DNA from: Okeania sp. SIO2B3
GTDB lineage: Bacteria > Cyanobacteriota > Cyanobacteriia > Cyanobacteriales > Microcoleaceae
Direction: 5' to 3'
Assembly: GCF_010672525.1 (NCBI RefSeq)
Contig: NZ_JAAHGH010000055.1
Span: 1 to 38,336, forward strand
DNA length: 38,336 nucleotides
Under the pieces are notes generated by a model, which did not search any database, was not told where the DNA came from, and was given only the letters and a program-made list of their open reading frames with translations. The stretch's first letter is position 1. Every line of letters begins with the position of its first letter. Made by a program: the position numbers and the translations under genes. This document shows, piece by piece, positions 13,181-36,995 of the stretch.

Positions 13181-13676
13181 TTTCTTTAATCTAGACTCTA
13201 AATAACTGGAGTTGGATTGAATTAAACTGTTCAGTCCCAACACTCAAGTAAATGTATTGTCTCATTAAATCTTGATTAATTTAACAAATTTGTGAATTTA
13301 ATCAACTTCAAGAATTAATTTTTGCCAATCAGGAGCCAAAATAATTTACAGTTAAGGTATTTGTTTTGCACTGAGTAATATTTAGATATTGAGATTGAGT
13401 TTAGTGTGATGTTTTGAGCGATAAATAATTCTGAGTTATGAGTTTAATTCTGAACGACTGGCGAATTTAGCTGGCAATTATGGTAGAAGAATAATTGATT
13501 TTAATACTTAGCGAAATATGATGATTTAGTTGTCTTTAATTGATTGAGGTTCTGAATATCTCACAATCTAATTCTTGATTCTGAATACTGAAATATTTAT
13601 GCCATTAATTACTTTCTCTATTCGCCAAACTTTGACTCATAAATCTGCGGTCAATATCCTGCAAAATACCAACATT

Positions 13677-13989
13677 CATTAATGGATAATTGATAATGGA
13701 TAATTGATAATTACCTCTCCCTAAAAGGGAGAGGATTGACAAATAAGGAAAAAAATTATTCTCTTGGTCGATTGGATATGCTGCATGCAGGTTTCAGAGC
13801 CATCCCACCCTACGGGAAAGCTGCGCTTTTTCCTACGGAATGCTACGCAAACATGTCGCGTAGCGTTAATGGAGTTGTGCGCCAGCAAAACGACCGCTTT
13901 TTTCCCCTTGAAAGGGGAGGCTTTTAACCAGGATTGTTTAATTATTTAATTATTTAATTATTTAATTATTTAATTATTAATTATTCGGT
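13677..13989 (+). repeat. Family A repeat with long internal insert, inside the MFS pseudogene
   Basis: It begins with GGATAATTGATAA units, then CCTCTCCCTAAAAGGGAGAGG and GATTGAC. It carries a GC-rich insert (about 13763-13890) that starts TTGGTCGATTGGATATG and contains CTACGGGAAAGCTGCGC, the reverse of the TGTTTGCG...TTCCGTAGG module and CGCCAGCAAAACGACCGC. It closes with CCCCTTGAAAGGGGAGGC, ATTTAATT units and ATTCGGT. Removing 313 bases here restores the transporter frame. Confidence 0.8.
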
Positions 13990-14130
13990 AATTCCCCCAC
14001 TTATTGCCATTAATAACCCCAAAAAAATCACCACAATTTGTGTTTTATATAATACCCATCCTCCTAGTAGCAGTCCGATTAAAAATCCAATCGCCCAACA
14101 CTGAACATTAATTGCTAAATAAATACCATT

Positions 14131-14259
14131 TCAACAATGAATAATGAATAATGAATAATGAATAATTACCTCTCCTTGAAAGAAGAGGATTGACAAAGAG
14201 ATGAAAATTTTTCTTTATTATCCCCTTAAAAGGGGAGGCTTTCAACCACAATTTTTCGG
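14131..14259 (+). repeat. Family A repeat, short form, inside the MFS pseudogene
   Basis: Complete minimal form: GAATAATGAATAATG units, CCTCTCCTTGAAAGAAGAGG, GATTGAC, a T-rich spacer, CCCCTTAAAAGGGGAGGC, then TTTCAACC and TTTTTCGG. Removal of 129 bases joins CCATT to TAAAG and restores PESL-NGIYL. Confidence 0.8.
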
Positions 14260-14316
14260 TAAAGATTCTGGTGCTAAATCCGCTACTAAAGCTGAGGCAG
14301 AAGGAGTATAAGAAAT

Positions 14317-14521
14317 AATTACCGAATAATTAATAATTAATAATTAATAATTAAATAATTCGCGCCTTGAAGCCTCCCCTTTTAAGGGGAAAAAAACGGT
14401 CGAGGGATGGCGAGGAAACCTGCGCCATATCCAATCGACCAAGAAAAGAAAATATTCCTTATATTCAATTCCGTAGCGGTTTTAACCATAGGTAATTATC
14501 AATTATCCATTATCAATTAAT
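14317..14521 (-). repeat. Family A repeat with medium insert, reverse, inside the MFS pseudogene
   Basis: Reverse-oriented copy whose insert is a fold-back: TTGGTCGATTGGATATGGCG pairs with the following CGCCATCCCTCGACCG. AAT occurs at both junctions (14314-14316 and 14519-14521), compatible with a 3-bp target duplication. Removal of 205 bases restores FAIF-ISYTP. Confidence 0.8.
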
Positions 14522-15002
14522 GAAAATAGCAAATCAACTTAAAGCTAAAGTCGTCCATAAAATATTACCTATTTCTACTATCCCAGTAATACCGATTACG
14601 AGAAATCCTCATCCCCATAATATTGCTGAAATTATTAATGGTTGAGCATGGCTGAAATTTCGTAATTTTTTCGCAACTGATAATTGGAATATAACAGTCA
14701 AAGCAGTATTTCCTGTAAATATAGCACTGATAATTAGTGATGAAAAATTTCCGAAAACAAAGTTGTTTAAATATCAAGGTATTGTGCTGTGAATTTGAGA
14801 AATGTAGAAAGTAAAAAAAATATTCACTAGCACAAAAATAATTAGAGTTATAATGATCGGATACATTTTAATCTCAATCTTTGTTCTGTGTTACCAAAAG
14901 CTCTAAAAATTAATATCTGATCGAGTCGCAAATTTTTGTAAGTTCAATGATGGTTCAGTAGTTGTTAATATGTAATTTTGCAATGATTTTAAATTAATTT
15001 GA

Positions 15003-15638
15003 ATGATTAATTATCTGAAAGGGAAAGTGGCTGATGTTCAAAAAGGCAGTGGTATTCGTGTAACTCTAATTTTAGAAGTTAATCAAGTAGGTTATGAGCT
15101 ACAAATTCTGCCAAGGTTAACTCAGAATTTACAGCAAGGGGAAGAGGTACAAGTTTTTACTCACCAACAAATACGGGAAGACCAAATGTTATTATATGGT
15201 TTTGGTACTTCTTCAGAAAGAGATTTATTTCGCCAGTTAGTAAGTGTTAGTGGTATTGGCACACAATTGGCGATCGCTTTGTTAAATACTTTAGAATTAC
15301 CAGATTTAGTCCAAGCTATTGTTGGGGGAAATACTCGTGTCTTAGCCAAAACTCCAGGAGTAGGCCCGAAAACTGCAGAACGCATTGCTTTAGAATTAAA
15401 AAATAAATTGGCCGAGTGGCGACATGATGCTGGCTTAACTACATCAGTACCTGTGGGAGTTTTGCCCGCTATTCAAGAGGAAGTAGAAATGACTTTGTTA
15501 GCTTTGGGATATACAGGTCCAGAGGTAATACAGGCATTGCAAGCTGTTAGTCAAAATGCTAAAATGTCCAAAAATATAAATGCAGAAGATTGGATTAGGG
15601 AAGCTATTAGTTGGTTGAGTCGTCCTACTCAACTTTGA
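15003..15638 (+). CDS. ruvA: Holliday junction branch migration protein RuvA
   Basis: 211 residues, normal for RuvA, which tetramerises on Holliday junctions and loads the RuvB motor. The N-terminal OB-fold domain is visible (MINYLKGKVADVQKG... VGYELQILPR, about 1-65). It is followed by the double helix-hairpin-helix region: LFRQLVSVSGIGTQLAIALL and LAKTPGVGPKTAERIALELK (about 70-140). After a short linker comes the C-terminal RuvB-binding three-helix domain (EVEMTLLALGYTGPEVIQAL, about 160-205). The ATG follows an AT-rich leader. A HIP1 octamer GCGATCGC lies within the gene near 15270. It is followed after 250 bases by rpsO on the same strand; that gap contains AGAACTC and CTCACTG direct repeats, so the two are probably transcribed separately. 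Confidence 0.96.
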   Translation: MINYLKGKVADVQKGSGIRVTLILEVNQVGYELQILPRLTQNLQQGEEVQVFTHQQIREDQMLLYGFGTSSERDLFRQLVSVSGIGTQLAIALLNTLELPDLVQAIVGGNTRVLAKTPGVGPKTAERIALELKNKLAEWRHDAGLTTSVPVGVLPAIQEEVEMTLLALGYTGPEVIQALQAVSQNAKMSKNINAEDWIREAISWLSRPTQL

Positions 15639-20229: not shown

Positions 20230-20368
20230 TTGCTTTTCCCCATTATTTTTGTTGTATGCGGGCATTATTGAGTTGTTGGTTTGAAACTAATAGAAATCAT
20301 CTATTTAATGATCGGGGTTAAAATAGGCAACAACCGTCTTCACTAGAGTTATTGAAGCTGATTCAACA

Positions 20369-20623
20369 ATTAATAATTAATAATTAATAATTACCTCTCC
20401 TTGAAAGGAAGAGGATTTACTAATTATGAAAATTTTTTCTCTCTTGGTCGATTGGATATGGCGAGGAGACCTTGCCATCCCACCCTACGGGAAAGCTGCG
20501 CTTTTTCCTACGGAATGCTCCGCAAACATGTCGCGTAGCGTTAACGGAGTTGTGCGCCAGCAAAACGACCGCTTGTTTCTCCTTTAAAGGAAAGGCTTTA
20601 AACCTTAATTCTTCGGTAAAAAA
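20369..20623 (+). repeat. Family A repeat with long internal insert
   Basis: It has AATTAATAATTAATAA units, CCTCTCCTTGAAAGGAAGAGG, a T-rich spacer, and a GC-rich insert nearly identical to that at 13763-13890 (TTGGTCGATTGGATATGGCG to CGCCAGCAAAACGACCGC). It ends with CTCCTTTAAAGGAAAGGC, TTTAAACC and TTCTTCGGTAA. It lies upstream of the GspE-like gene. Confidence 0.8.
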
Positions 20624-21061: not shown

Positions 21062-22192
21062 CTAAGAACTATTTCGCAAGGACTGAGCAGATAAGTATAA
21101 TTTAGTCCATTCGCTAATAACTTGGTTACTTCTCAAGTTTAATTGTTTAGCAATTTCCTCTACACTCGCACCTGATTTTAAGCTGTCGATTAAATGACGT
21201 TGTTGGGGATTAAGATTTTTCCAATATTCTTGCCATTGATTAGAAGTCAAACCTAAGCCATGCTCATTCAGAGAAATTTCTAACCAACTAGCTACTAATT
21301 CTGGTTGTTGTTTAACTGCAAAAACACGAATTGCATGATAACTGACCTTTTCTCGTAACCTATACACTTGCTTGATAGGCATATCTAAAGCTTGAGCAAT
21401 TTCCTCTTGAGTATTGCCTCGAAGATAAAGCTTCAACCATTCTGCTGCCTTGGAATCAACTTTTTCCGCCAAATATTTCTCAAATTCTTCCTGGACTTTA
21501 GAGCGGAGCAAATGTTGTTGCTCCATTTCTTCAGTATCTTGATACCCTGAAGTCACTACAGCATCCAACAAACTCACTTGATCTTCGGTATCACCAGGAC
21601 TAATATCTTCTGAGATTAATTTAACCCATTCTTTTACAGGTACTTGAGTTAGGCCACCTCTTTGAGTTCTACGTAGATAATTAACAAATCTATATACCAG
21701 TAAAGGCTGATTACGAATCGGTCTAATACAATATTCTTCTACACTAGCCAATAACAGAGAGTTGCGAAGATTGGGATTTTTTGTACATTCACTGATTTTG
21801 GCCATTTGCTGCTGTAGGTAGCGATCGCTATTGAGCATCTCTTGGATCACTTCCTGTAGGACATCTATTACACTTCGTTGGCGATCGCGACTGGTATTTA
21901 CCCATGCTCGTATTTTCTGTCGCAGCATTACTAGGCCACTCAAGCGTTGCAGTAAGTTTCGATAAGCTCGCTCTGGCGGAATGTCCAAATATCTTTGTTT
22001 TAGAATTCGATAAAGAAACTCTCTGCCTTTAGATGCCATTGCCCTTTGAGTAGGGGTCAGCTCGTCTAAGCGACTAGGATTATTCCCCAATAGCCAGCAA
22101 ATAATACTGTTGTGGACATCTGAGCTATGGTTTGGGTAGTCTTCCTGAAGTTTGGTTTTCCACTCTTGTTCCAGTGCTTGGGCCAAAGTCAT
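21062..22192 (-). CDS. HetZ-related regulator, second paralogue
   Basis: 376 residues, helical and probably cytoplasmic. Its C-terminal 140 residues align without gaps to speak of with the HetZ at 4010-5179. It has YLRGNTQEEIAQALDMPIKQ (first HTH-like part), VYRLREKVSYHAIRVFAVKQ, ELVASWLEISLNEHGLGLTS, and a second HTH-like ASVEEIAKQLNLRSNQVISE ending in LSAQSLRN. HetZ has ELVHQWLEADLEHNLGLTP and LAWELRN at the same places. The N-terminal half (NPSRLDELTPTQRAMASKGR, VYRFVNYLRRTQRGG) is more divergent but of similar length. It is likely one of the HetZ-related proteins found beside HetZ in filamentous cyanobacteria; its specific role is unknown to me. No patU-like partner follows; the flanks are repeats. 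HIP1 octamers lie inside the gene (21820, 21880). Confidence 0.75.
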   Translation of the reverse strand: MTLAQALEQEWKTKLQEDYPNHSSDVHNSIICWLLGNNPSRLDELTPTQRAMASKGREFLYRILKQRYLDIPPERAYRNLLQRLSGLVMLRQKIRAWVNTSRDRQRSVIDVLQEVIQEMLNSDRYLQQQMAKISECTKNPNLRNSLLLASVEEYCIRPIRNQPLLVYRFVNYLRRTQRGGLTQVPVKEWVKLISEDISPGDTEDQVSLLDAVVTSGYQDTEEMEQQHLLRSKVQEEFEKYLAEKVDSKAAEWLKLYLRGNTQEEIAQALDMPIKQVYRLREKVSYHAIRVFAVKQQPELVASWLEISLNEHGLGLTSNQWQEYWKNLNPQQRHLIDSLKSGASVEEIAKQLNLRSNQVISEWTKLYLSAQSLRNSS

Positions 22193-22195
22193 TTC

Positions 22196-22335
22196 AGTTA
22201 TCAGTTATCAGTTATCAGTTATCAGTAGCTTTGCCTGTTTGCGCAGCATTCCGTAGGAAAGCATCAGGATTGAAATATTGAACTTTATTTTTTTTCATCC
22301 CCTTGAAAGGGAAGACTTGAGACCTTATTTTTTGG
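22196..22335 (+). repeat. Family B interspersed repeat
   Basis: CAGTTATCAGTTATCAGTTA units, then the TGTTTGCGCAGCATTCCGTA module, GATTGAAAT, a T-rich spacer, CCCCTTGAAAGGG, and TTGAGACC...TTTTTTGGTCA. The architecture parallels family A (tandem start, hairpin, closing GGTCA/GGTAA), but the start unit is different. Other copies are at about 29645, 32503 and 37735. It abuts the start of the HetZ-related gene. Confidence 0.7.
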
Positions 22336-23412: not shown

Positions 23413-23480
23413 ATAGTTATCGAAAATCAATGTTTATATTTGTAGGTATTATAGTGAACGTAAAAATATTTTATGGAATT

Positions 23481-26400
23481 ATGACTTCTTCTAAAATAAA
23501 TAAGCAGAATCAGATACCACAAAGTCTTCAAGAAAAAATACAGATAGCTAAGGATAAAAAACTTAAGGAATTAGATTTAAGCAATAATACTGTTAACAAA
23601 GGTGATAAAAGATTAACTGAAATTCTTAATAAAGTTTTGGAATTAGAACTGCTAGAAGTATTAAATTTAAGTCGTAATAAATTAACAACATTACCGGAAT
23701 CAATCACTAAACTCAACAACTTAACTACCCTTGATTTAAGTGGCAACAAATTAACAACATTACCGGAATCAATCACTAAACTCACCAACTTAACTGCCCT
23801 TGATTTAAGTGGTAATCAATTAATGCAATTACCAGAATCAGTCACTAAACTCAACAACTTAACTACCCTTGATTTAAGTCGCAATAAGTTAACAACATTA
23901 CCGGAATCAATCACTAAACTCACCAACTTAACTATGTTTTTTTTAAATGGTAATCAATTAATGGAATTACCAGAATCAATCACTAAACTCAACAACTTAA
24001 CTACGCTTTATTTGAATTTTAACAAATTAACAACATTACCGGAATCAATCACTAAACTCAACAACTTAACTACGCTTTATTTAAGTAATAATAAATTAAC
24101 GAAATTACCGGAATCAATCACTAAACTCACCAACTTAAGTAAGCTTGATTTAAGTGACAATCAATTAACAATCTTGCCGGAATTAATCAGTAAATTCACC
24201 AACTTAACTGGGGTTGATGTAAGTGATAATCAATTAACAACATTACCGGAATCAATCAGTAAACTCACCAACTTAACTGGGGTTGATGTAAGTGGTAATA
24301 AATTAACAACATTACCGGAATCAATCAGTAAACTCACCAACTTAAATAAGCTTTATTTAAGTAGAAACCAATTAACGAAATTACCGGAATCAATCAGTAA
24401 ACTCACTAACTTAACTGGGCTTTATTTAAGTAGAAATCAATTAACGAAATTACCGGAATCAATCAGTAAACTCACCAACTTAACTACGCTTTATTTACAT
24501 CTTAATCAATTAACAACATTACCGAAATCAATCACTAAACTTAACAACTTAACTGCCCTTGGTTTAAGTGGTAATCAATTAAGGAAATTACCGGAATCAA
24601 TCACTAAACTCACTAACCTAACAGAGCTTGATTTAAATCGTAATCAATTAACAACATTACCGGAATCAATCACTAAACTTACCAACTTAACTGGTCTTTA
24701 TTTAAGTTTCAATAAACTAACAAAATTACCAGAATCAATCATTAAACTCACCAACTTAACTAAGCTTGATTTAAGTAATAATCAATTAACTAAATTATCG
24801 GAATCAATCACTAAATTCACCAACTTAACAGAGCTTTATTTACATGATAATCCCCTAGAAAACCCACCAATAGAAATTGCTGAAAAAGGTATAAAAGCAA
24901 TTAGAGAATTTTTCCCACAAATAAAAGAAGAAGGAACAGATTATCTCTATGAAGCAAAATTACTAATTATTGGAGAAGGCGGGGCTGGTAAAACTACTCT
25001 AGCTAATAAAATTCAAAACCCAGGCTATCAACTCCGAGATGAAGATTCGACCAAAGGAATTGAAGTTCATCAGTGGAATTTTTATACCGCAAATCAACAT
25101 TACTTTCAGATGAATATTTGGGATTTTGGCGGACAAGAAATTTATCATACTACCCACCAATTTTTTCTGACCAAACGCTCCCTATATATTCTTGTGGCTG
25201 ATACTCGTAAAGAAGATACAGACTTTTATTATTGGCTGAATGTAGTAGAATTGTTGAGCGATAATAGTCCTTTACTAATTATCAAAAATGAGAAACAAGA
25301 ACGTAAACGGGAAATTAATCAAAGACCATTACAAGGTCAATTTTCTAATATCAAAGAAATCTTAGCAACTAATCTTGCTACTAACCGAGGATTAGAAAAA
25401 ATTAGAACAGATATCAAACATTACATCAGTAATTTACCTCATATTGGCAGTGCCCTTCCTAAGACTTGGAAAAAAGTCCGTGAAGTATTAGAAAAAGATT
25501 CCCGCAACTATATTAGCCTAGAAGAATATTTATCTATTTGTGAAAAGAATAGCTTTAAGAAACTAGAGTATAAATTACAATTAAGTGACTATTTACATGA
25601 CTTAGGAGTTTTTCTTCATTTTCAGGATGACCCGCTCTTAAATAAAACAGTTATTCTTAAACCAGAATGGGGAACAGCAGCAGTTTATAAAGTTCTAGAT
25701 AATCCACAAGTTTATGATAATTGTGGCAAATTTACCAAGGATGATTTAACCAATATTTGGCATGAAGATAAATATGACAATATGCACGACGAGTTACTGC
25801 AATTAATGATTAAATTTAAACTCTGCTATAAAATTACTGGTACTTCTCAAACCTATATTGCACCTCAACTTTTAACAGAAGCTCAACCAAGATATCAATG
25901 GAATGAAAATAATAATCTGATATTACGTTACACCTACGAATTTATGCCTAAAGGAATTATTACTCAGTTTATTGTGGCGATGCACGAGGATATTGATGAG
26001 CAAAAATATGTTTGGAAAAGCGGAGTTATTCTCAAGAAAAATCGAGCTAGAGCAGAAGTAATTGAATATTACAGTAAGAGAGAAATAAAAATTAGAATTT
26101 CTGGGCAACAAAAACGGGATTTAATGACTATTGTGACTCACGAATTAGATAAAATTCATAATTCCTACAATAATCGACTCAAATATGATAAATTAATTCC
26201 TTGTAATTGTAAAACTTGTAAAAATACTCAGAATCCTCACTTCTACAAATTTGAGAAATTAAAAGAACGGCTTAATAATGGCAAAATGACAATTGAATGC
26301 GGTAATTCCCCCTATTATGAAGTTAATATCCAAAGTTTAATTGATGATGCAATAGATAGTCATAAGTATGAAAAAAATTCACAACTTAGTCATTCTCTTA

Positions 26401-26738
26401 ATATAGATATAGGTGGAGACGTTATAGTTAATAGCCGTAAAATTAACAATAAAGATGGAAATGTTGTGGATAATATATTCGGTAATAATAATATTAAAAA
26501 TGAAGTAACAGGAAATTCTAGTCAACCAAAAAAAGAGGAAACTAAAAAATTTGGATTTTTAGATTTCTTGACTTGGATGCAGAATGGGCAAATTCTTTTC
26601 ATCTTAATCTCTTCTATTATTGGCATTATTTTGCTGATTATTTATCCTAAGTTATATCCAGATGGATTACCAGAATGGGTAAAGCCAATTCAAGAGCTAA
26701 TTTCAACTCCACAAAAAGAAAATAAATCCGTTCATTAA
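23481..26738 (+). CDS. Roco protein: LRR-Roc-COR with C-terminal membrane segment
   Basis: About 1085 residues from the ATG at 23481 (GGA just upstream); the frame opens at 23430. Residues 58-470 are 18 leucine-rich repeats of 23 residues with consensus LTxLxLSxNxLTxLPESIxK. The Roc GTPase domain follows, with P-loop GEGGAGKT (498-505) and switch WDFGGQE (547-553). The NKxD guanine motif is replaced by KNEKQ (602-606). The COR region (about 650-890) is followed by a cysteine cluster PCNCKTC (Cys908, 910, 913) plus IECGNSPYYEVN, probably a metal site. Then come an Asn-rich stretch (DIGGDVIVNSRKI), a single membrane helix (about 1037-1055) and a short tail. Roco proteins are GTP-regulated dimers in signalling; partners of bacterial forms are mostly unknown. 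No toxin, TIR or kinase effector is visible. It stands alone between two family C repeats. Confidence 0.9.
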   Translation: MTSSKINKQNQIPQSLQEKIQIAKDKKLKELDLSNNTVNKGDKRLTEILNKVLELELLEVLNLSRNKLTTLPESITKLNNLTTLDLSGNKLTTLPESITKLTNLTALDLSGNQLMQLPESVTKLNNLTTLDLSRNKLTTLPESITKLTNLTMFFLNGNQLMELPESITKLNNLTTLYLNFNKLTTLPESITKLNNLTTLYLSNNKLTKLPESITKLTNLSKLDLSDNQLTILPELISKFTNLTGVDVSDNQLTTLPESISKLTNLTGVDVSGNKLTTLPESISKLTNLNKLYLSRNQLTKLPESISKLTNLTGLYLSRNQLTKLPESISKLTNLTTLYLHLNQLTTLPKSITKLNNLTALGLSGNQLRKLPESITKLTNLTELDLNRNQLTTLPESITKLTNLTGLYLSFNKLTKLPESIIKLTNLTKLDLSNNQLTKLSESITKFTNLTELYLHDNPLENPPIEIAEKGIKAIREFFPQIKEEGTDYLYEAKLLIIGEGGAGKTTLANKIQNPGYQLRDEDSTKGIEVHQWNFYTANQHYFQMNIWDFGGQEIYHTTHQFFLTKRSLYILVADTRKEDTDFYYWLNVVELLSDNSPLLIIKNEKQERKREINQRPLQGQFSNIKEILATNLATNRGLEKIRTDIKHYISNLPHIGSALPKTWKKVREVLEKDSRNYISLEEYLSICEKNSFKKLEYKLQLSDYLHDLGVFLHFQDDPLLNKTVILKPEWGTAAVYKVLDNPQVYDNCGKFTKDDLTNIWHEDKYDNMHDELLQLMIKFKLCYKITGTSQTYIAPQLLTEAQPRYQWNENNNLILRYTYEFMPKGIITQFIVAMHEDIDEQKYVWKSGVILKKNRARAEVIEYYSKREIKIRISGQQKRDLMTIVTHELDKIHNSYNNRLKYDKLIPCNCKTCKNTQNPHFYKFEKLKERLNNGKMTIECGNSPYYEVNIQSLIDDAIDSHKYEKNSQLSHSLNIDIGGDVIVNSRKINNKDGNVVDNIFGNNNIKNEVTGNSSQPKKEETKKFGFLDFLTWMQNGQILFILISSIIGIILLIIYPKLYPDGLPEWVKPIQELISTPQKENKSVH
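23652..24893 (+). repeat. 69-bp coding tandem repeats of the LRR domain
   Basis: The 18 LRR units are 69 bases each, and many are nearly identical at the DNA level (TTACCGGAATCAATCACTAA recurs with one or two changes). Units in the middle (about 24190-24490) share ATCAGTAAA instead of ATCACTAAA, indicating block duplication within the array. Confidence 0.85.
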
Positions 26739-26751
26739 TGGATAATTGATA

Positions 26752-26998
26752 ATTAGTACTTGCTGATTAAATCTCAAAGTATTTACAGATAAAGGTAAGT
26801 GCCTTTTTGGGGCCTTTAAAAAGTGCCTGGTTTTCAGCCTAAAACTCTCAAAAAGTTAGTATTTTAGGTGCATAGTTAGGCATAAAAATAATTATTACAA
26901 TTCTTACTTCTACCTCCTCTAAGTACCCATTTCTCCTGTCTCCAGTATAGCTGTCTCCTACCCTCACCCATAAGACTTTTGAGCGCAAACCCTAATTA
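26752..26998 (+). repeat. Family C interspersed repeat downstream of the Roco gene
   Basis: Best-preserved copy: TACTTGCTGATTAAATCTCA, AGATAAAGGTAAGTGCCTTT, TTTTCAGCCTAAAACTCTCA, AGTTAGTATTTTAGG, TTACTTCTACCTCCTCT, TTCTCCTGTCTCC, CTCACCCATAAGACTTTTGA then GCGCAAACCCTAATTA. It lies immediately beyond the Roco stop. Confidence 0.78.
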
Positions 26999-26999
26999 C

Positions 27000-27112
27000 C
27001 TTTCCCTAAAAGGAAGAGAATTGACTAAAAAGAAAAAATTTATTTTTTTCCCTTTGAAAGGGGAGGCTTTCAACATAAATTATTTCATTATTAATTATTC
27101 GGTAAATTAGAG
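27000..27112 (+). repeat. Family A interspersed repeat abutting family C
   Basis: CCTTTCCCTAAAAGGAAGAG, AATTGAC, a T-rich spacer, CCCTTTGAAAGGGGAGGC, TTTCAAC, ATTATT units and ATTCGGTAA. It follows the family C copy without a gap, sharing the TAATTACC junction. The rest of the gap to 27295 has no gene. Confidence 0.72.
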
Positions 27113-28388: not shown

Positions 28389-29556
28389 TACACTTGCCTC
28401 CACGTCCGTTTCTTGTCTCCGTTAGCGTAGCTCCTCCGGAGGAGGCATGCCCAAGGAGCGACTAATATATTTATCGCTGCGTTTTCATCACGGTCGTGTT
28501 TTGCACTACAGTTTAGACACTCCCACTCTCGCACCTGAAGGTCTAATTTTCCACCTTTAAAGCCACAATTTGAGCAAATTTGAGAAGTAGGCTCCCAACG
28601 ATTAATTACTCTAAAATCACGACCATATTTTTCAGCAATTCCATCTAAAAAAGTCCGTATGGGTTCTCCATCCTAAATCAGAAATTGCTCTGGATAATTT
28701 GCGGTTTTTTACCATACCAGATACATTCAAATCCTCTAAAACAACTGTTTGGTTTTCACGAATTATTTTAGTAGATAATTTATGTAGAAAATCTGTCAAG
28801 CGTATCTTTCAGTTTGGCATGGAACTTAGCTATTCTAACCCGTGCTTTTTCATACCTTTTAGAGCCTTTGGTTTTATGAGATAATGACTTACTTAACTTT
28901 CTTAACTTCTTAATTCGTTTTTTGAGTGGTTTAAGAGCATCAACTTTTGTACCATCACTAAATGTAGCAAAGGTTGAAATGCCTAAATCTATACCTACTG
29001 AATTATCAGTTTTAGGTAAGATTTCTGGTTGTATTTCTGCTACAAAACTCAAGAAATATCTATGGGCTGAATCTTTGATTACTGTTACTGATGATGGAGC
29101 AGTAGGTAATTCTCTTGACCATACAATTTTCAGCTTTCCTATCTTAGCCAAATAAACTTTATGTTGACCAACTTCAAACCCTCCCTTTGTAAACCTAGCA
29201 GTTTGCTTTGACTTTCTACTTTTTTTAAATTTAGGAGGTTTAACGGGTCTACCTTTTCTCTGGCCTTGAGTTGATTTAAAAAAGTTTTGATAAGCCTGGT
29301 TTAAATCATTCAATGATTGCTGCAATGGTATGTTAGAAACCTCTGATAACCATTCTCTTTCTTCAGTTTTTTTAGCTTGAGTAATAAAAAGCTTTTGTAG
29401 CTCTGAATTAGTGGGCTTATTTTCTCCCGATTTATACTTCTGTTGGCAACAAGCTAGACTATCATTCCAAACCACACGGACACAACCAAATAGCTTTGCT
29501 AATCGGTATTTTTGTCCGAGTGTTGGATAGATACGATACTTAAATCTAGCTTTCAT
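28388..29556 (-). pseudogene. tnpB: Frameshifted tnpB of an IS605/IS1341-type element
   Basis: The first 258 codons (MKARFKYRIYPTLGQKYRLA onward) give the TnpB N-terminus and the first RuvC Asp in SVGIDLGISTF (Asp190). A one-base shift near 28793-28805 moves the frame to DFLHKLSTKIIRENQTVVLE then DLNVSG, with the second catalytic Glu. A second shift at an A6 run (28647-28652) leads to YGRDFRVINRWEPTSQICSN, the zinc ribbon CSNCG...CLNC and the last catalytic Asp in KHDRDENAAIN, ending at 28388. All catalytic residues survive, so the damage is recent, or one shift is a homopolymer sequencing error. No tnpA is present. TnpB is an RNA-guided nuclease. Confidence 0.85.
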
Positions 29557-29639
29557 AATCTAAGTTTTTAACTAACAGCATCATAACATATTTATCGAAT
29601 CATTTAGCAACTAAAAAGTCGCCCTAGAAGGGCGAGGCT

Positions 29640-29800
29640 TGAGACCAAATTTTACGGTCATTTCAGTTATTAGTTATCAGTTAACAGTACCTCTGGCTGT
29701 TTGCACAGCATGACCTAGGAAACCCAGAGGCTTGAAATAATGAAATTTATTCTTTTCATCCTCTTCAAAGGGGAGGCTTTGGACCTCATTTTTTGGTAAA
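29640..29800 (+). repeat. Family B interspersed repeat
   Basis: GACC...TTTTACGGTCA is followed by TTTCAGTTATTAGTTATCAG units, the diverged module TGTTTGCACAGCATGACCTA, CCCAGAGGCTTGAAAT, a T-rich spacer, CTTCAAAGGGGAGGC and TTTTTTGGTAA. A small hairpin CGCCCTAGAAGGGCG lies just before it (about 29621-29635), near the left end of the tnpB element. Confidence 0.68.
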
Positions 29801-33281: not shown

Positions 33282-33291
33282 AGCTATATTC

Positions 33292-33418
33292 AACAATTAA
33301 TAATTAATAATTAATAATTACCTCTTCTTTTCAAGGAGAGGATTGACGCGGAGCGTGAAATTTTTTTCTTGTTTCTCCTTTAAAGGAGAGGCTTTAAATC
33401 TTAACTATTCGGTAATTT
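33292..33418 (+). repeat. Family A interspersed repeat between two exported-protein genes
   Basis: AATTAATAATTAATAATTAA units, CCTCTTCTTTTCAAGGAGAGG, GATTGAC, a T-rich spacer, CTCCTTTAAAGGAGAGGC, TTTAAATC and CTATTCGGTAA. Full-length short form without the GC-rich insert. Confidence 0.8.
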
Positions 33419-34310: not shown

Positions 34311-34359
34311 AAATTCAGTATCAAAAAACTTTTCAGATATCCTCTTAGCTGAGTTATTT

Positions 34360-35002
34360 TTACTGTTGAAATTTTTCGATTAAGCAATTTCCAACTAACC
34401 TTTGATTCATGTTGCGACTACGTTGAAGTGCTTCCTCAAGTAAGGAAATTTTTAATCCTGGTAAAACAAGAGATTCTCTAATTTGTTTACTACCTCCATC
34501 CACCACAGCAAATGCAATAATTTTCACATTTTGTACATCAACTATCCAATATTCTCCCACTCCGATATTTTCAGATAAAATACGTTTTTCTCCTTGATCG
34601 TCAGAAAGCGAACTATTAGCAACTTCTATTACTAAGTCTGGTGGTGGATATTTTTATAAATCAATAATAGAAGTTTCAGGAGGAACAAAATCGGCATTTT
34701 TTCCTAAATAATTAAGAGGCATCTGGTTGAGCATCTTTCAATCCTACTTTTCTATAAGTGGAATTATCTATACCGTTAAAATCAATGCCTTTGAAAATTG
34801 AAAACAAATTTATTGTCAGCATGATTACTACGTGGTCTCTGCCGTGTTTATTACCAAGAGGACTCATTTCAATTCTATATTTTTGACTGTGATAGTAACA
34901 CTTGGCTTTTTCGCTATCTAGATTTTCAATTACTTGTAAATACTCTGACCACGTTGCAGTTATCCAAGTATCAGTTAAAATTTTTGTTTGTAAGTTACTC
35001 AT
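34360..35002 (-). pseudogene. Uma2-family nuclease-like gene, copy 1, broken
   Basis: It starts MSNLQTKILTDTWITATWSE (ATG at 35000-35002) and reads through KYRIEMSPLGNKHGRDHVVI and TYRKVGLKDAQPDAS, where one extra base creates a stop. In the corrected frame it continues YLGKNADFVPPETSIIDL, then meets TAA before KYPPPDLVIEVANSSLSDD. It ends GEYWIVDVQNVKIIAFAVVD to IEKFQQ. These are the marks of Uma2/DUF820 proteins, PD-(D/E)xK-fold proteins greatly expanded in cyanobacteria. One frameshift and one shared stop make it non-functional. Confidence 0.82.
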
Positions 35003-35064
35003 GGCTTATTTACTTCTTTACAAATATTTGTTTCGAGGAAGTTGAAATTGAATATGAATCATTT

Positions 35065-35706
35065 TTACTGTTGAAATTTTTCGATTAAGCGACTTCCAAC
35101 TAACCTTTGATTCATGTTGCGACTACGTTGAAGTGCTTCATCAAGTAAGGAAATTTTTAATCCTGGTAAAACAAGAGATTCTCTAATTTGTTTACTACCT
35201 CCATCCACCACAGCAAATGCAATAATTTTCACATTTTGTACATCAACTATTCAATATTCTCCCACTCCAATATTTTCAGATAAAATACGTTTTTCTCCTT
35301 GATCATCAGAAAGCGAACTATTAGCAACTTCTATTACTAAGTCTGGTGCTGGATATTTTTATAAGTCAATAATAGAAGTTTCAGGAGGAACAAAATCGGC
35401 ATTTTTTCCCAAATAATAAGAGGCATCTGGTTGAGTATCTTTCAATCCTGCTTTTCTATAAGTGGAATTATCTATACCGTTAAAATCAATGCCTTTTCAA
35501 ATTGAAAACAAATTTATTGTCAGCATGATTACTGCGTGGTCTCTGCCGTGTTTATTACCAAGAGGACTCATTTCAATTCTATATTTTTGACTGTGATAGT
35601 AACACTTGGCTTTTTCGCTATCTAGATTTTCAATTACTTGTAAATACTCTGACCACGTTGCAGTTATCCAAGTATCAGTTAAAATTTTTGTTTGTAAGTT
35701 ACTCAT
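35065..35706 (-). pseudogene. Uma2-family gene, copy 2, broken
   Basis: Same gene as copy 1 but with different damage: TTC to TGA after NLFSI (about 35495-35497), the shared TAA before the KYPAPDLVIEV part, and TGG to TGA in GEY-W-IVDV (about 35251). The frameshift of copy 1 is absent here (PDASYYLGKNADF is intact). Start ATG at 35704-35706. Confidence 0.82.
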
Positions 35707-35768
35707 GGCTTATTTACTTCTTTACAAATATTTGTTTCGAGGAAGTTGAAATTGAATATGAATCATTT

Positions 35769-36410
35769 TTACTGTTGAAATTTTTCGATTAAGCGACTTC
35801 CAACTAACCTTTGATTCATGTTGCGACTACGTTGAAGTGCTTCATCAAGTAAGGAAATTTTTAATCCTGGTAAAACAAGAGATTCTCTAATTTGTTTACT
35901 ACCTCCATCCACCACAGCAAATGCAATAATTTTCACATTTTGTACATCAACTATTCAATATTCTCCCACTCCAATATTTTCAGATAAAATACGTTTTTCT
36001 CCTTGATCATCAGAAAGCGAACTATTAGCAACTTCTATTACTAAGTCTGGTGCTGGATATTTTTATAAGTCAATAATAGAAGTTTCAGGAGGAACAAAAT
36101 CGGCATTTTTTCCCAAATAATAAGAGGCATCTGGTTGAGTATCTTTCAATCCTGCTTTTCTATAAGTGGAATTATCTATACCGTTAAAATCAATGCCTTT
36201 TCAAATTGAAAACAAATTTATTGTCAGCATGATTACTGCGTGGTCTCTGCCGTGTTTATTACCAAGAGGACTCATTTCAATTCTATATTTTTGACTGTGA
36301 TAGTAACACTTGGCTTTTTCGCTATCTAGATTTTCAATTACTTGTAAATACTCTGACCACGTTGCAGTTATCCAAGTATCAGTTAAAATTTTTGTTTGTA
36401 AATTACTCAT
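35769..36410 (-). pseudogene. Uma2-family gene, copy 3, broken
   Basis: It carries the same three stop codons as copy 2 at the same places, so copies 2 and 3 arose by duplication after the gene was already dead, or were homogenised. It differs mainly upstream of its start (ATTTATCTGCTTCTTTCAAC) and by one base just before the ATG at 36408-36410. Confidence 0.82.
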
Positions 36411-36544
36411 TATTTATCTGCTTCTTTCAACAAATTTATTTGTCAGCTGAGTTATCTTATTTTCTATTCCCTGTTTCCCGAATTACTACTCCCTACTCCC
36501 TACTACTTACTCATAATTTATAGACTTATTCCAATTATTTTTTG

Positions 36545-36995
36545 GTTATCTAGATTTTCAATTACTTGTAGATATTCTGACTAAGTTGCAGTTACCCAAG
36601 TATCAGTTAAGATTTTTGTTTGTAAATTACTCATTATTTATCTGCTTCTTTCAATAAATTTATTTGTAAGTTGAGTTATCTTTATAGAAATTCGGTATTG
36701 CATAAATACAGTATGATTTTAATAGTTTTGTGGAATGAGCATCTTGCCTGTTCCTTATATTTTCGTTCCTTAATTAGGACTTAAGCAAAGGCACTATATA
36801 TAGTAGATAAAAACTATAGCACTATGGCATATATAGCGTTTTTGTCGGAAAAGTGTGTAAGTCCTGTATATGTTTCAAATTGTTCCATTAAGCAAGTGCC
36901 ATCTAACCGTTAATTAATGTTTCGACTAAGTTCCAATGCTTAATTTAGTGGAGAAATTTTTAATTCTGGTAAAACTATAGCGTTTCTCAAGTTAA
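36545..36995 (-). pseudogene. Older, scattered Uma2 gene fragments
   Basis: 36545-36660 is similar to the first 30 codons and leader of the tandem units (ATTTTCAATTACTTGTAGAT, AAATTACTCATTATTTATCT). 36880-36995 resembles their 3' end (GTGCCATCTAACC, AATTTTTAATTCTGGTAAAA). Both are too diverged to translate. They show that the array once extended further. Confidence 0.6.

What the first reader, a model, noticed from the sequence alone, without database searches (positions are those of the whole stretch)
13605..14866. One dead transporter gene hit by three related repeats, each precisely removable
The C-terminal half of an MFS gene is split by three family A repeats (313, 129 and 205 bp) in both orientations. 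Deleting each at the stated junctions rejoins the protein exactly (FAIF-ISYTP, PESL-NGIYL, SGGI-NVGIL). This is direct evidence that family A repeats insert as discrete units without damaging the flanks, and it fixes their true ends. Three hits in about 600 bp of former gene is a striking density, whether from a target preference or from lack of selection after the gene died. Clean junctions also raise the possibility of precise excision or even removal at the RNA level, though nothing shows that.
Basis: seen in the sequence. Interest (0 to 1): 0.78.

Follow-up and report, generated by a model that had tools for sequence, protein, structure and literature searches.

The report
Guide-targeted jumping repeats in transporter pseudogene
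A dead transporter gene in a marine Okeania-type cyanobacterium was hit by three short DNA elements that have the ends of a known single-strand transposon, carry no transposase, and sit directly after the four letters TTAC without adding or removing a base.

Summary
The window is from an Okeania-type genome. Three inserts split an MFS gene remnant: 13675-13987 (313 bp), 14130-14258 (129) and 14323-14524 (202, not 205). Joined flanks align without a gap at the junction to uninterrupted sites in relatives; there is no target duplication or loss. Insert 2 is absent from the closest relative, which has a fourth insert after another TTAC.

Each insert follows TTAC, has a guide tetranucleotide (AAAG; GAAG in insert 3) before a left hairpin, CAAT before a right hairpin (degenerate in insert 3), then 4-5 units of 7 bases, and ends TGAA. 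The same kind of left end heads TnpB and IS605-type elements of the genus, one beside a Y1 tnpA with intact motifs. There, target and guide bases are Watson-Crick partners in 278 of 289 left ends. So these are non-autonomous IS200/IS605-type (PATE-like) elements; the short form alone has 116-281 copies in each of five genomes. Precise junctions follow from this class; nothing supports RNA-level removal.

New: the right end is lengthened in 7-base steps, and a sister family carries TAACTGA arrays, reported elsewhere as repeats of unknown origin.

The parts
13675..13987 (-). Insert 1 (family A), 313 bp, from CGAATAATT to ..TTAATGAA
   Evidence: Gap-free empty sites in L111, L032, L033; bases checked
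13988..13991 (-). Target tetranucleotide TTAC flanking the left end of insert 1
   Evidence: TTAC also in several empty sites
13735..13738 (-). Insert 1 right guide CAAT, directly 5' of the right hairpin
13714..13734 (-). Insert 1 right hairpin CCTCTCCCTTTTAGGGAGAGG (9+3+9)
13679..13713 (-). Insert 1 spacer of five 7-base units, followed by TGAA (13675-13678)
14130..14258 (-). Insert 2 (family A), 129 bp, from CGAAAAATT to ..TTGTTGAA; absent from G004
14259..14262 (-). Target TTAC of insert 2; TTAC also in the empty site of G004, TTGC in five other empty sites
14219..14243 (-). Insert 2 left guide AAAG and left hairpin CCTCCCC..GGGGA
14134..14168 (-). Insert 2 spacer of five 7-base units, followed by TGAA (14130-14133)
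14323..14524 (+). Insert 3 (family A), 202 bp, from CGAATAATT to ..TTAATGAA; left guide is GAAG, right hairpin degenerate
   Evidence: Gap-free empty sites in 5 relatives
14319..14322 (+). Target TTAC of insert 3 (TTGC in L032, L111, L033, L035; TAGC in L037)
14493..14520 (+). Insert 3 spacer of four 7-base units, followed by TGAA (14521-14524)
13605..14846 (-). MFS gene remnant (C-terminal half) holding the three inserts; N-terminal half missing
20362..20615 (-). Further family A element after TTAC (254 bp); its empty-site alignments have gaps at the junction
33289..33411 (-). Further family A element after TTAC (123 bp); no empty site found
28780..29656 (-). Decayed TnpB element: left end CGTAAAATTTGGTCTCAAG-hairpin after TGAC (29657-29660), tnpB frame 28780-29556 (258 aa)
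   Evidence: OrfB_IS605 E 3e-16, HTH_OrfB_IS605 E 1e-16
22188..22334 (-). Family C element after TGAC with TAACTGA array, ends ..TAACTGAAATGAC; its ATG is the first codon of the ORF 21062-22192

Best explanation
The three inserts are non-autonomous elements of the IS200/IS605 type (PATE-like). Shown: the anatomy (target TTAC outside the left end, guide tetranucleotide and hairpin at each end although degenerate in insert 3, fixed 3' end TGAA), insertion without duplication or loss, presence/absence between close relatives, and the same kind of left end on TnpB and IS605-type elements of the genus. The MFS gene was decaying and offered several TTAC sites on both strands. Which TnpA acts, and whether any copy still moves, is not shown.
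For: Junction-exact empty sites. All three inserts and the fourth in G004 directly 3' of TTAC; p about 1.2e-7 for three. Left-end short form TTACCGAAWAATTNNGGTTNAAAGCCTCYCC with up to 1 mismatch: 173 in the own genome, 116-281 in five genomes of the genus, 8 of 39 genomes with a match, reversed control 0. TnpB elements with the same kind of left end: L177 and L235 (OrfB_IS605 E 3e-31, 6e-31). L235 is laid out TTAC-left end-tnpA(-)-tnpB(+)-right end TCAA; L274 has the left end beside a tnpA with DHVH and YIQNQ. Guide/target pairs in TnpB-type left ends of five genomes: TTAC 241 AAAG and 1 CAAG; TGAC 29 CAAG and 9 AAAG; TCAC 8 GAAG and 1 AAAG: 278 of 289 Watson-Crick. Right guide/end GAAT/TCAA in 19 of 23 TnpB-type right ends, the IS608 letters (PMC5934647, passages), against CAAT/TGAA in family A. 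Right hairpin: 15 distinct 21-mers, 12-15 of 15 paired at each of 9 positions, one position with CG, TA and TG.
Against: The guide of insert 3 and of the fourth G004 insert is GAAG, which would not pair by Watson-Crick with TTAC. Empty sites of inserts 2 and 3 mostly read TTGC, so TTAC as the state before insertion is seen only for insert 2 (G004) and insert 1. DNA folding gives both hairpins as local structures only for insert 1; for inserts 2 and 3 only the left one, for 33289-33411 neither. Of 9 elements tested, two gave junctions with a 4-base gap (20362-20615 and its G001 copy) and two had no empty site. No intact tnpA with a matching left end was found in the own genome; in 31 tnpA loci checked only L131, L136 and L235 had a left end of the searched form nearby, and only in L235 is it placed as in an IS605 element. 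L235 has lost the residue after the catalytic tyrosine that is a metal ligand (YIQGG); L274 has a broken tnpB and no right end found.
Confidence: 0.9

Rival explanations
1. Classical MITEs moved by a DDE transposase, with terminal inverted repeats and target duplications.
For: Short, non-coding, many copies in both orientations. A different repeat of the genus does look like this (GGGTTTGCTGA..TCAGCAAACCC, seen in L122 and L235).
Against: Empty sites show no duplication; the two ends are not inverted repeats of each other; the flank is fixed on the left side only.
Confidence: 0.03
2. REP/REPIN-like elements moved by a domesticated TnpA (RAYT, or the Y1 subclass 1.2 protein found directly beside a family A copy in L122, L131 and L135).
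For: A family A copy lies 3' of the subclass-1.2-like gene in G000 and G003, and a related left end in G004; a mini-element lies 3' of a RAYT-like gene at G000:C112.
Against: The subclass-1.2-like gene is not co-distributed: no close homologue in G002, G016, G021 and G011 (best E 2.5e-9 to 4.7e-6), which have 116, 171, 137 and 22 family A copies, while many genomes with a close homologue have none. Family A has both ends of a complete element, TTAC and AAAG rather than a GTAG-tagged single REP.
Confidence: 0.08
3. The arrays and inserts are products of replication slippage or recombination rather than of transposition.
For: The 7-base units surely vary in number, most simply by slippage.
Against: Whole units of 129-313 bp appear at new places with both ends fixed at TTAC and TGAA and no change of flanks. 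Slippage can explain the spacer, not the insertions.
Confidence: 0.02
4. The inserts are removed at RNA level, so that the gene is still expressed.
For: Only that the junctions are clean.
Against: No Rfam match in the window at gathering threshold; the N-terminal half of the gene is missing, so no full protein could result; ends and targets are those of a DNA element.
Confidence: 0.01

Closest known systems
PATEs (palindrome-associated transposable elements) of Haloquadratum walsbyi (PMC3119063; passages read)
   Same: Too short for a transposase, no terminal inverted repeats, near-terminal palindromes like those of resident IS605-type elements, no target duplication, strain-specific insertions.
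   Different: Different sequences and host; the passages read do not mention 7-base tandem spacers. The paper notes heterogeneity of the 20-50 bp beyond the palindrome.
IS608 of Helicobacter pylori (PMC5934647; passages read)
   Same: Target TTAC outside the left end, left guide AAAG; the TnpB-type right ends here also have its right guide GAAT and end TCAA. The pair that covaries here is A+16:T-3 of that paper.
   Different: No genes in family A; right guide/end are CAAT/TGAA; longer terminal spacers.
REP/REPIN with TnpA-REP, and Y1 subclass 1.2 (PMC6006769; passages read)
   Same: Small hairpin DNA tied to Y1 proteins, many copies.
   Different: No GTAG tag, complete left and right ends, not co-distributed with the subclass-1.2-like gene.
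TAACTGA heptamer repeats of Beggiatoaceae, Cyanobacteria and Bacteroidetes (PMC4679880; abstract, sections 7 and 8, further passages read)
   Same: Family C of this window carries TAACTGA arrays ending TAACTGA-A-ATG-AC, as in that paper's largest category, which ends 1 nt before a start codon.
   Different: The paper proposes translational regulation and finds no mechanism of spread (it mentions transposon excision marks only as conceivable); here arrays lie in the right end of an insertable element. Beggiatoaceae were not examined by me.

Membership tests
IS200/IS605-derived non-autonomous element (PATE) | Insertion 3' of a fixed tetranucleotide, no target duplication | tested here: met
   reservation: TTGC in most empty relatives at inserts 2 and 3
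IS200/IS605-derived non-autonomous element (PATE) | Subterminal hairpin at both ends | tested here: inconclusive
   Met for insert 1 and in the aligned family; insert 3 has a degenerate right hairpin and folding of inserts 2 and 3 shows only the left one
IS200/IS605-derived non-autonomous element (PATE) | Guide tetranucleotide 5' of the hairpin foot that matches the cleavage site | tested here: met
   278 of 289 TnpB-type left ends (TAAC not searched, copies not independent); inserts 1 and 2 have AAAG with TTAC, insert 3 has GAAG
IS200/IS605-derived non-autonomous element (PATE) | Ends shared with a transposase-bearing IS605-type element | tested here: met
   Left end shared in kind with L235 and L274; the right end differs (CAAT/TGAA against GAAT/TCAA)
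IS200/IS605-derived non-autonomous element (PATE) | Mobilised by a Y1 TnpA through a single-strand circle | not testable with these tools
   Needs biochemistry or a transposition assay
MITE of DDE type | Terminal inverted repeats and target duplication | tested here: not met
REPIN with RAYT | GTAG-type tag and association with a RAYT gene | tested here: not met
   Tag is AAAG with TTAC; the one Y1 gene tested for co-distribution fails; RAYT genes themselves were not tested for co-distribution

The most novel reading that the evidence does not exclude
Seven-base tandem arrays of cyanobacteria, both the TAATTAT type in these inserts and the TAACTGA type, are right-end spacers of single-strand transposons that lengthen in 7-base steps between hairpin and 3' cut. 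TAACTGA elements cut at TGAC on both sides and end ATGAC, so an insertion into a start codon followed by AC gives the gene its start codon back; this would explain why TAACTGA repeats, read elsewhere as a translational control network, so often end one base before a start codon.
Probability: 0.4. Interest if true: 0.8.

Novelty: new variant of a known kind. Interest (0 to 1): 0.6.

Why it matters
It turns an unexplained repeat family of Okeania-type genomes into a defined mobile element with a testable target code, and shows in 289 left ends of five genomes what was engineered for IS608 in the laboratory: that target and guide change together. If the 7-base arrays are transposon right ends in general, a set of repeats proposed as a regulatory network of unknown origin gets a simple source, and a prediction that can be checked in any genome: genes with TAACTGA one base before the start begin ATG-AC, and a TGAC-type left end lies upstream.

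Tried and rejected
The Y1 gene beside a family A copy (L122) as the driver: rejected by distribution. An autonomous copy in the own genome: not found; the tnpA-containing loci I checked gave a correctly placed left end only for L235, and L274 came later. Empty sites for 20362-20615 and its G001 copy: alignments have a 4-base gap at the junction, left open. RNA families: none in the window at gathering threshold. DNA folding as proof of two hairpins: mixed. TAACTGA in rplV of Microcystis-like genomes (unnamed, my reading of genome size and family): in 7 of 7 genomes of that genus the sequence TAACTGAA-ATGAC precedes the gene, but I saw no left end there, and other genera have other 7-base units or none at that place (30 of 40 matches had loci and were viewed); this speaks against a transposon end at that gene. 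The right-hairpin motif used for the TAACTGA count (16 of 25 arrays, 1.8% of 4000 random positions) was written after seeing the arrays; left-end motif 11 of 25 against 4.9%. The 25 arrays and the 33 right ends include orthologous copies.

Not in print: I found no description of these elements in the listings (in one search four papers hold Okeania and transpos; only their listing was seen).

Full report
Where the window comes from. The ruvA-like ORF at 15003-15638 (named from recall of the family) is identical in G004 and 96-97% identical in G001-G003, all placed in the same genus. The own genome and G001 are unnamed.

The locus. BLAST and alignment against six loci show that the MFS remnant on the minus strand is interrupted by three inserts which relatives lack, and that the N-terminal half of the gene is missing. 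L035 and L037 have complete frames, and L035 is an MFS_1 protein. The closest relative, G004, has inserts 1 and 3, an empty site for insert 2, and a fourth insert of 212 bp directly after AAATATTAC, where the window is empty after position 14568.

True ends. Taking the ends as TTAC| on the left and TGAA| on the right, joined flanks align without a gap to empty sites for all three inserts (coordinates checked). Insert lengths are 313, 129 and 202. Of the nine elements given, four (the three and the G004 copy of insert 3) were gap-free at the junction, one (L111:2823-3107, TCAA type) was empty in four loci with one or two gaps elsewhere, two (window 20362-20615 and its G001 copy) had a four-base gap at the junction, and two had no empty site. 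In relatives the tetranucleotide is mostly TTGC at inserts 2 and 3; G004, empty for insert 2, has TTAC.

The element. In 326,000 bases of the own genome 22 left-hairpin motifs were found; 15 of them have TTACCRAA or its near form upstream as printed, others read TGAC, TTACCC, TTACCT or CTACCT. The left end is TTAC|CGAAtAATTaaGGTTTAAAG-hairpin; longer forms have extra AATTAAT-like units. The right end is TCAAT-hairpin followed by TAATTAT-like units and TGAA. Of 33 right ends selected by the motif TCAAT and a GGTAAT foot, 23 have the first TGAA at a multiple of seven bases (3, 4, 5 or 7 units: 4, 4, 14 and 1 cases), 3 off it, and 7 none within 140 bases; six permuted tetramers gave 0-3 multiples and 10-23 off. 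Because CAAT was part of the selection it is not independent evidence. The counts include orthologous copies. Fifteen distinct right hairpins of 21 nt pair in 12-15 cases at each of nine positions.

Relation to IS605-type elements. The pattern TTACCGAAAAATTGGGTTTAAAGCCTCGCCC (up to two mismatches) has 59 matches in the own genome and 15-106 in the four others, none for the reversed control. It heads TnpB elements (L159/L177, L155, L163, L166) and mini-elements of about 240-290 bp ending GATGTCAA. L235 in O. hirsuta has left end, tnpA on the minus strand, tnpB and right end in the order of IS605, but its tnpA ends YIQGG. L274 in G001 has the left end beside a tnpA with DHVH and YIQNQ, a broken tnpB, and no right end found. 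The window itself has a decayed TnpB element with target TGAC and guide CAAG.

Guide code. In five genomes of the genus, left ends of the TnpB type with T[TGC]AC as target were counted: TTAC with AAAG 241 and with another first guide base 1 (CAAG); TGAC with CAAG 29 and AAAG 9; TCAC with GAAG 8 and AAAG 1. So 278 of 289 have Watson-Crick partners at target position 2 and guide position 1. In IS608 this is the pair A+16:T-3 (PMC5934647, passages). TAAC was not searched, and copies of one subfamily are not independent. Among TnpB-type right ends 19 of 23 have guide GAAT with end TCAA, the rest being a shifted register (3) or TCCA (1); family A has CAAT with TGAA, so the same position pairs G:C in one and C:G in the other. 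Inserts 1 and 2 follow the left code (AAAG); insert 3 and the fourth G004 insert have GAAG with TTAC, which does not.

Spread. The short left end of family A (up to one mismatch) occurs 173, 201, 116, 281 and 213 times in G000-G004, 171 in G016, 137 in G021, 22 in G011, and 0 in the other 31 of 39 genomes, reversed control 0. Inserts 1 and 3 have the long form and are not counted by this pattern. A Y1 gene of the kind called subclass 1.2 in PMC6006769 (passages) stands beside a family A copy but is not co-distributed with the family.

Family C and TAACTGA. A sister family starts after TGAC with guide CAAG and ends in a TAACTGA array plus ATGAC. Upstream of the rpsO-like gene (named from recall) G001 is filled, CTGAC|CAAAAAATAAGG..TAACTGAAATGAC|CAACTTTGAACATTT, and the window reads CCCTGAGCAATTTTGAGCATTT, an empty site with one change in the target. 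Of 25 arrays in 472,601 bases, 12 are followed by AATGAC. In the window the element 22188-22334 supplies the ATG of the ORF 21062-22192; the flank before the element reads ATCGTGAC, so a GTG-ACT start before the insertion is my inference. TGATAACTGATAACTGAAATGAC is found in 12 of 386 cyanobacterial genomes, 159 times in the own genome, reversed control 0. In 31 such places of 12 genomes the ATG opens a frame of at least 100 aa in 22; three of three places in G028 and three of four in the own genome do not, and in the Okeania sample 5 of 17 do, three of them one gene. Several of the other loci show a TGAC left end with CAAG upstream; the rplV arrays do not. PMC4679880 (abstract, sections 7 and 8, passages) reports TAACTGA arrays mostly pointing at start codons, the largest class ending 1 nt before, and no mechanism of spread. 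Beggiatoaceae could not be searched here.

Verdict. The finding is a real set of insertions by non-autonomous IS200/IS605-type elements. The class is known; the lengthening of the right end in 7-base steps and the natural guide code within one genus are the new parts; the TAACTGA link is the bold part and rests on Okeania plus some other cyanobacterial loci, with the rplV case against it.

Noticed in passing
L111:10031-12568 and L032:616-1095: The 3' end of the MFS gene is present several times in G001 (five matches to the joined flank of insert 1) and twice in O. hirsuta: repeated partial duplication of this gene end.
   Followed up: no
L122:1120-1500, L235:3150-3400, window 26952-27011: Another repeat with GGGTTTGCTGA..TCAGCAAACCC ends, apparently of inverted-repeat type, sits inside 7-base arrays of family A copies.
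   Followed up: partly
window 23527-24930: ORF 23430-26738 (1102 aa) with about 17 leucine-rich units of 69 bp and a GTPase-like part; the unit number differs from G004.
   Followed up: no
window 34350-36987: A 704-705 bp unit repeated three times in tandem; G004 shows one full copy and shorter units.
   Followed up: no
L236:700-1420 (G000:C112): A TCAA-type mini-element lies directly 3' of a RAYT-like Y1 gene.
   Followed up: no
G000:C122:97-127, C239:97-127, C45:131-161, C135:131-161: TnpB-type left ends lie near contig starts, so that long identical copies may have broken the assembly.
   Followed up: no
L286-L289, L293 upstream of rplV-like genes: Other cyanobacteria have a different 7-base array (TTAACTA units) directly before the same gene.
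   Followed up: no
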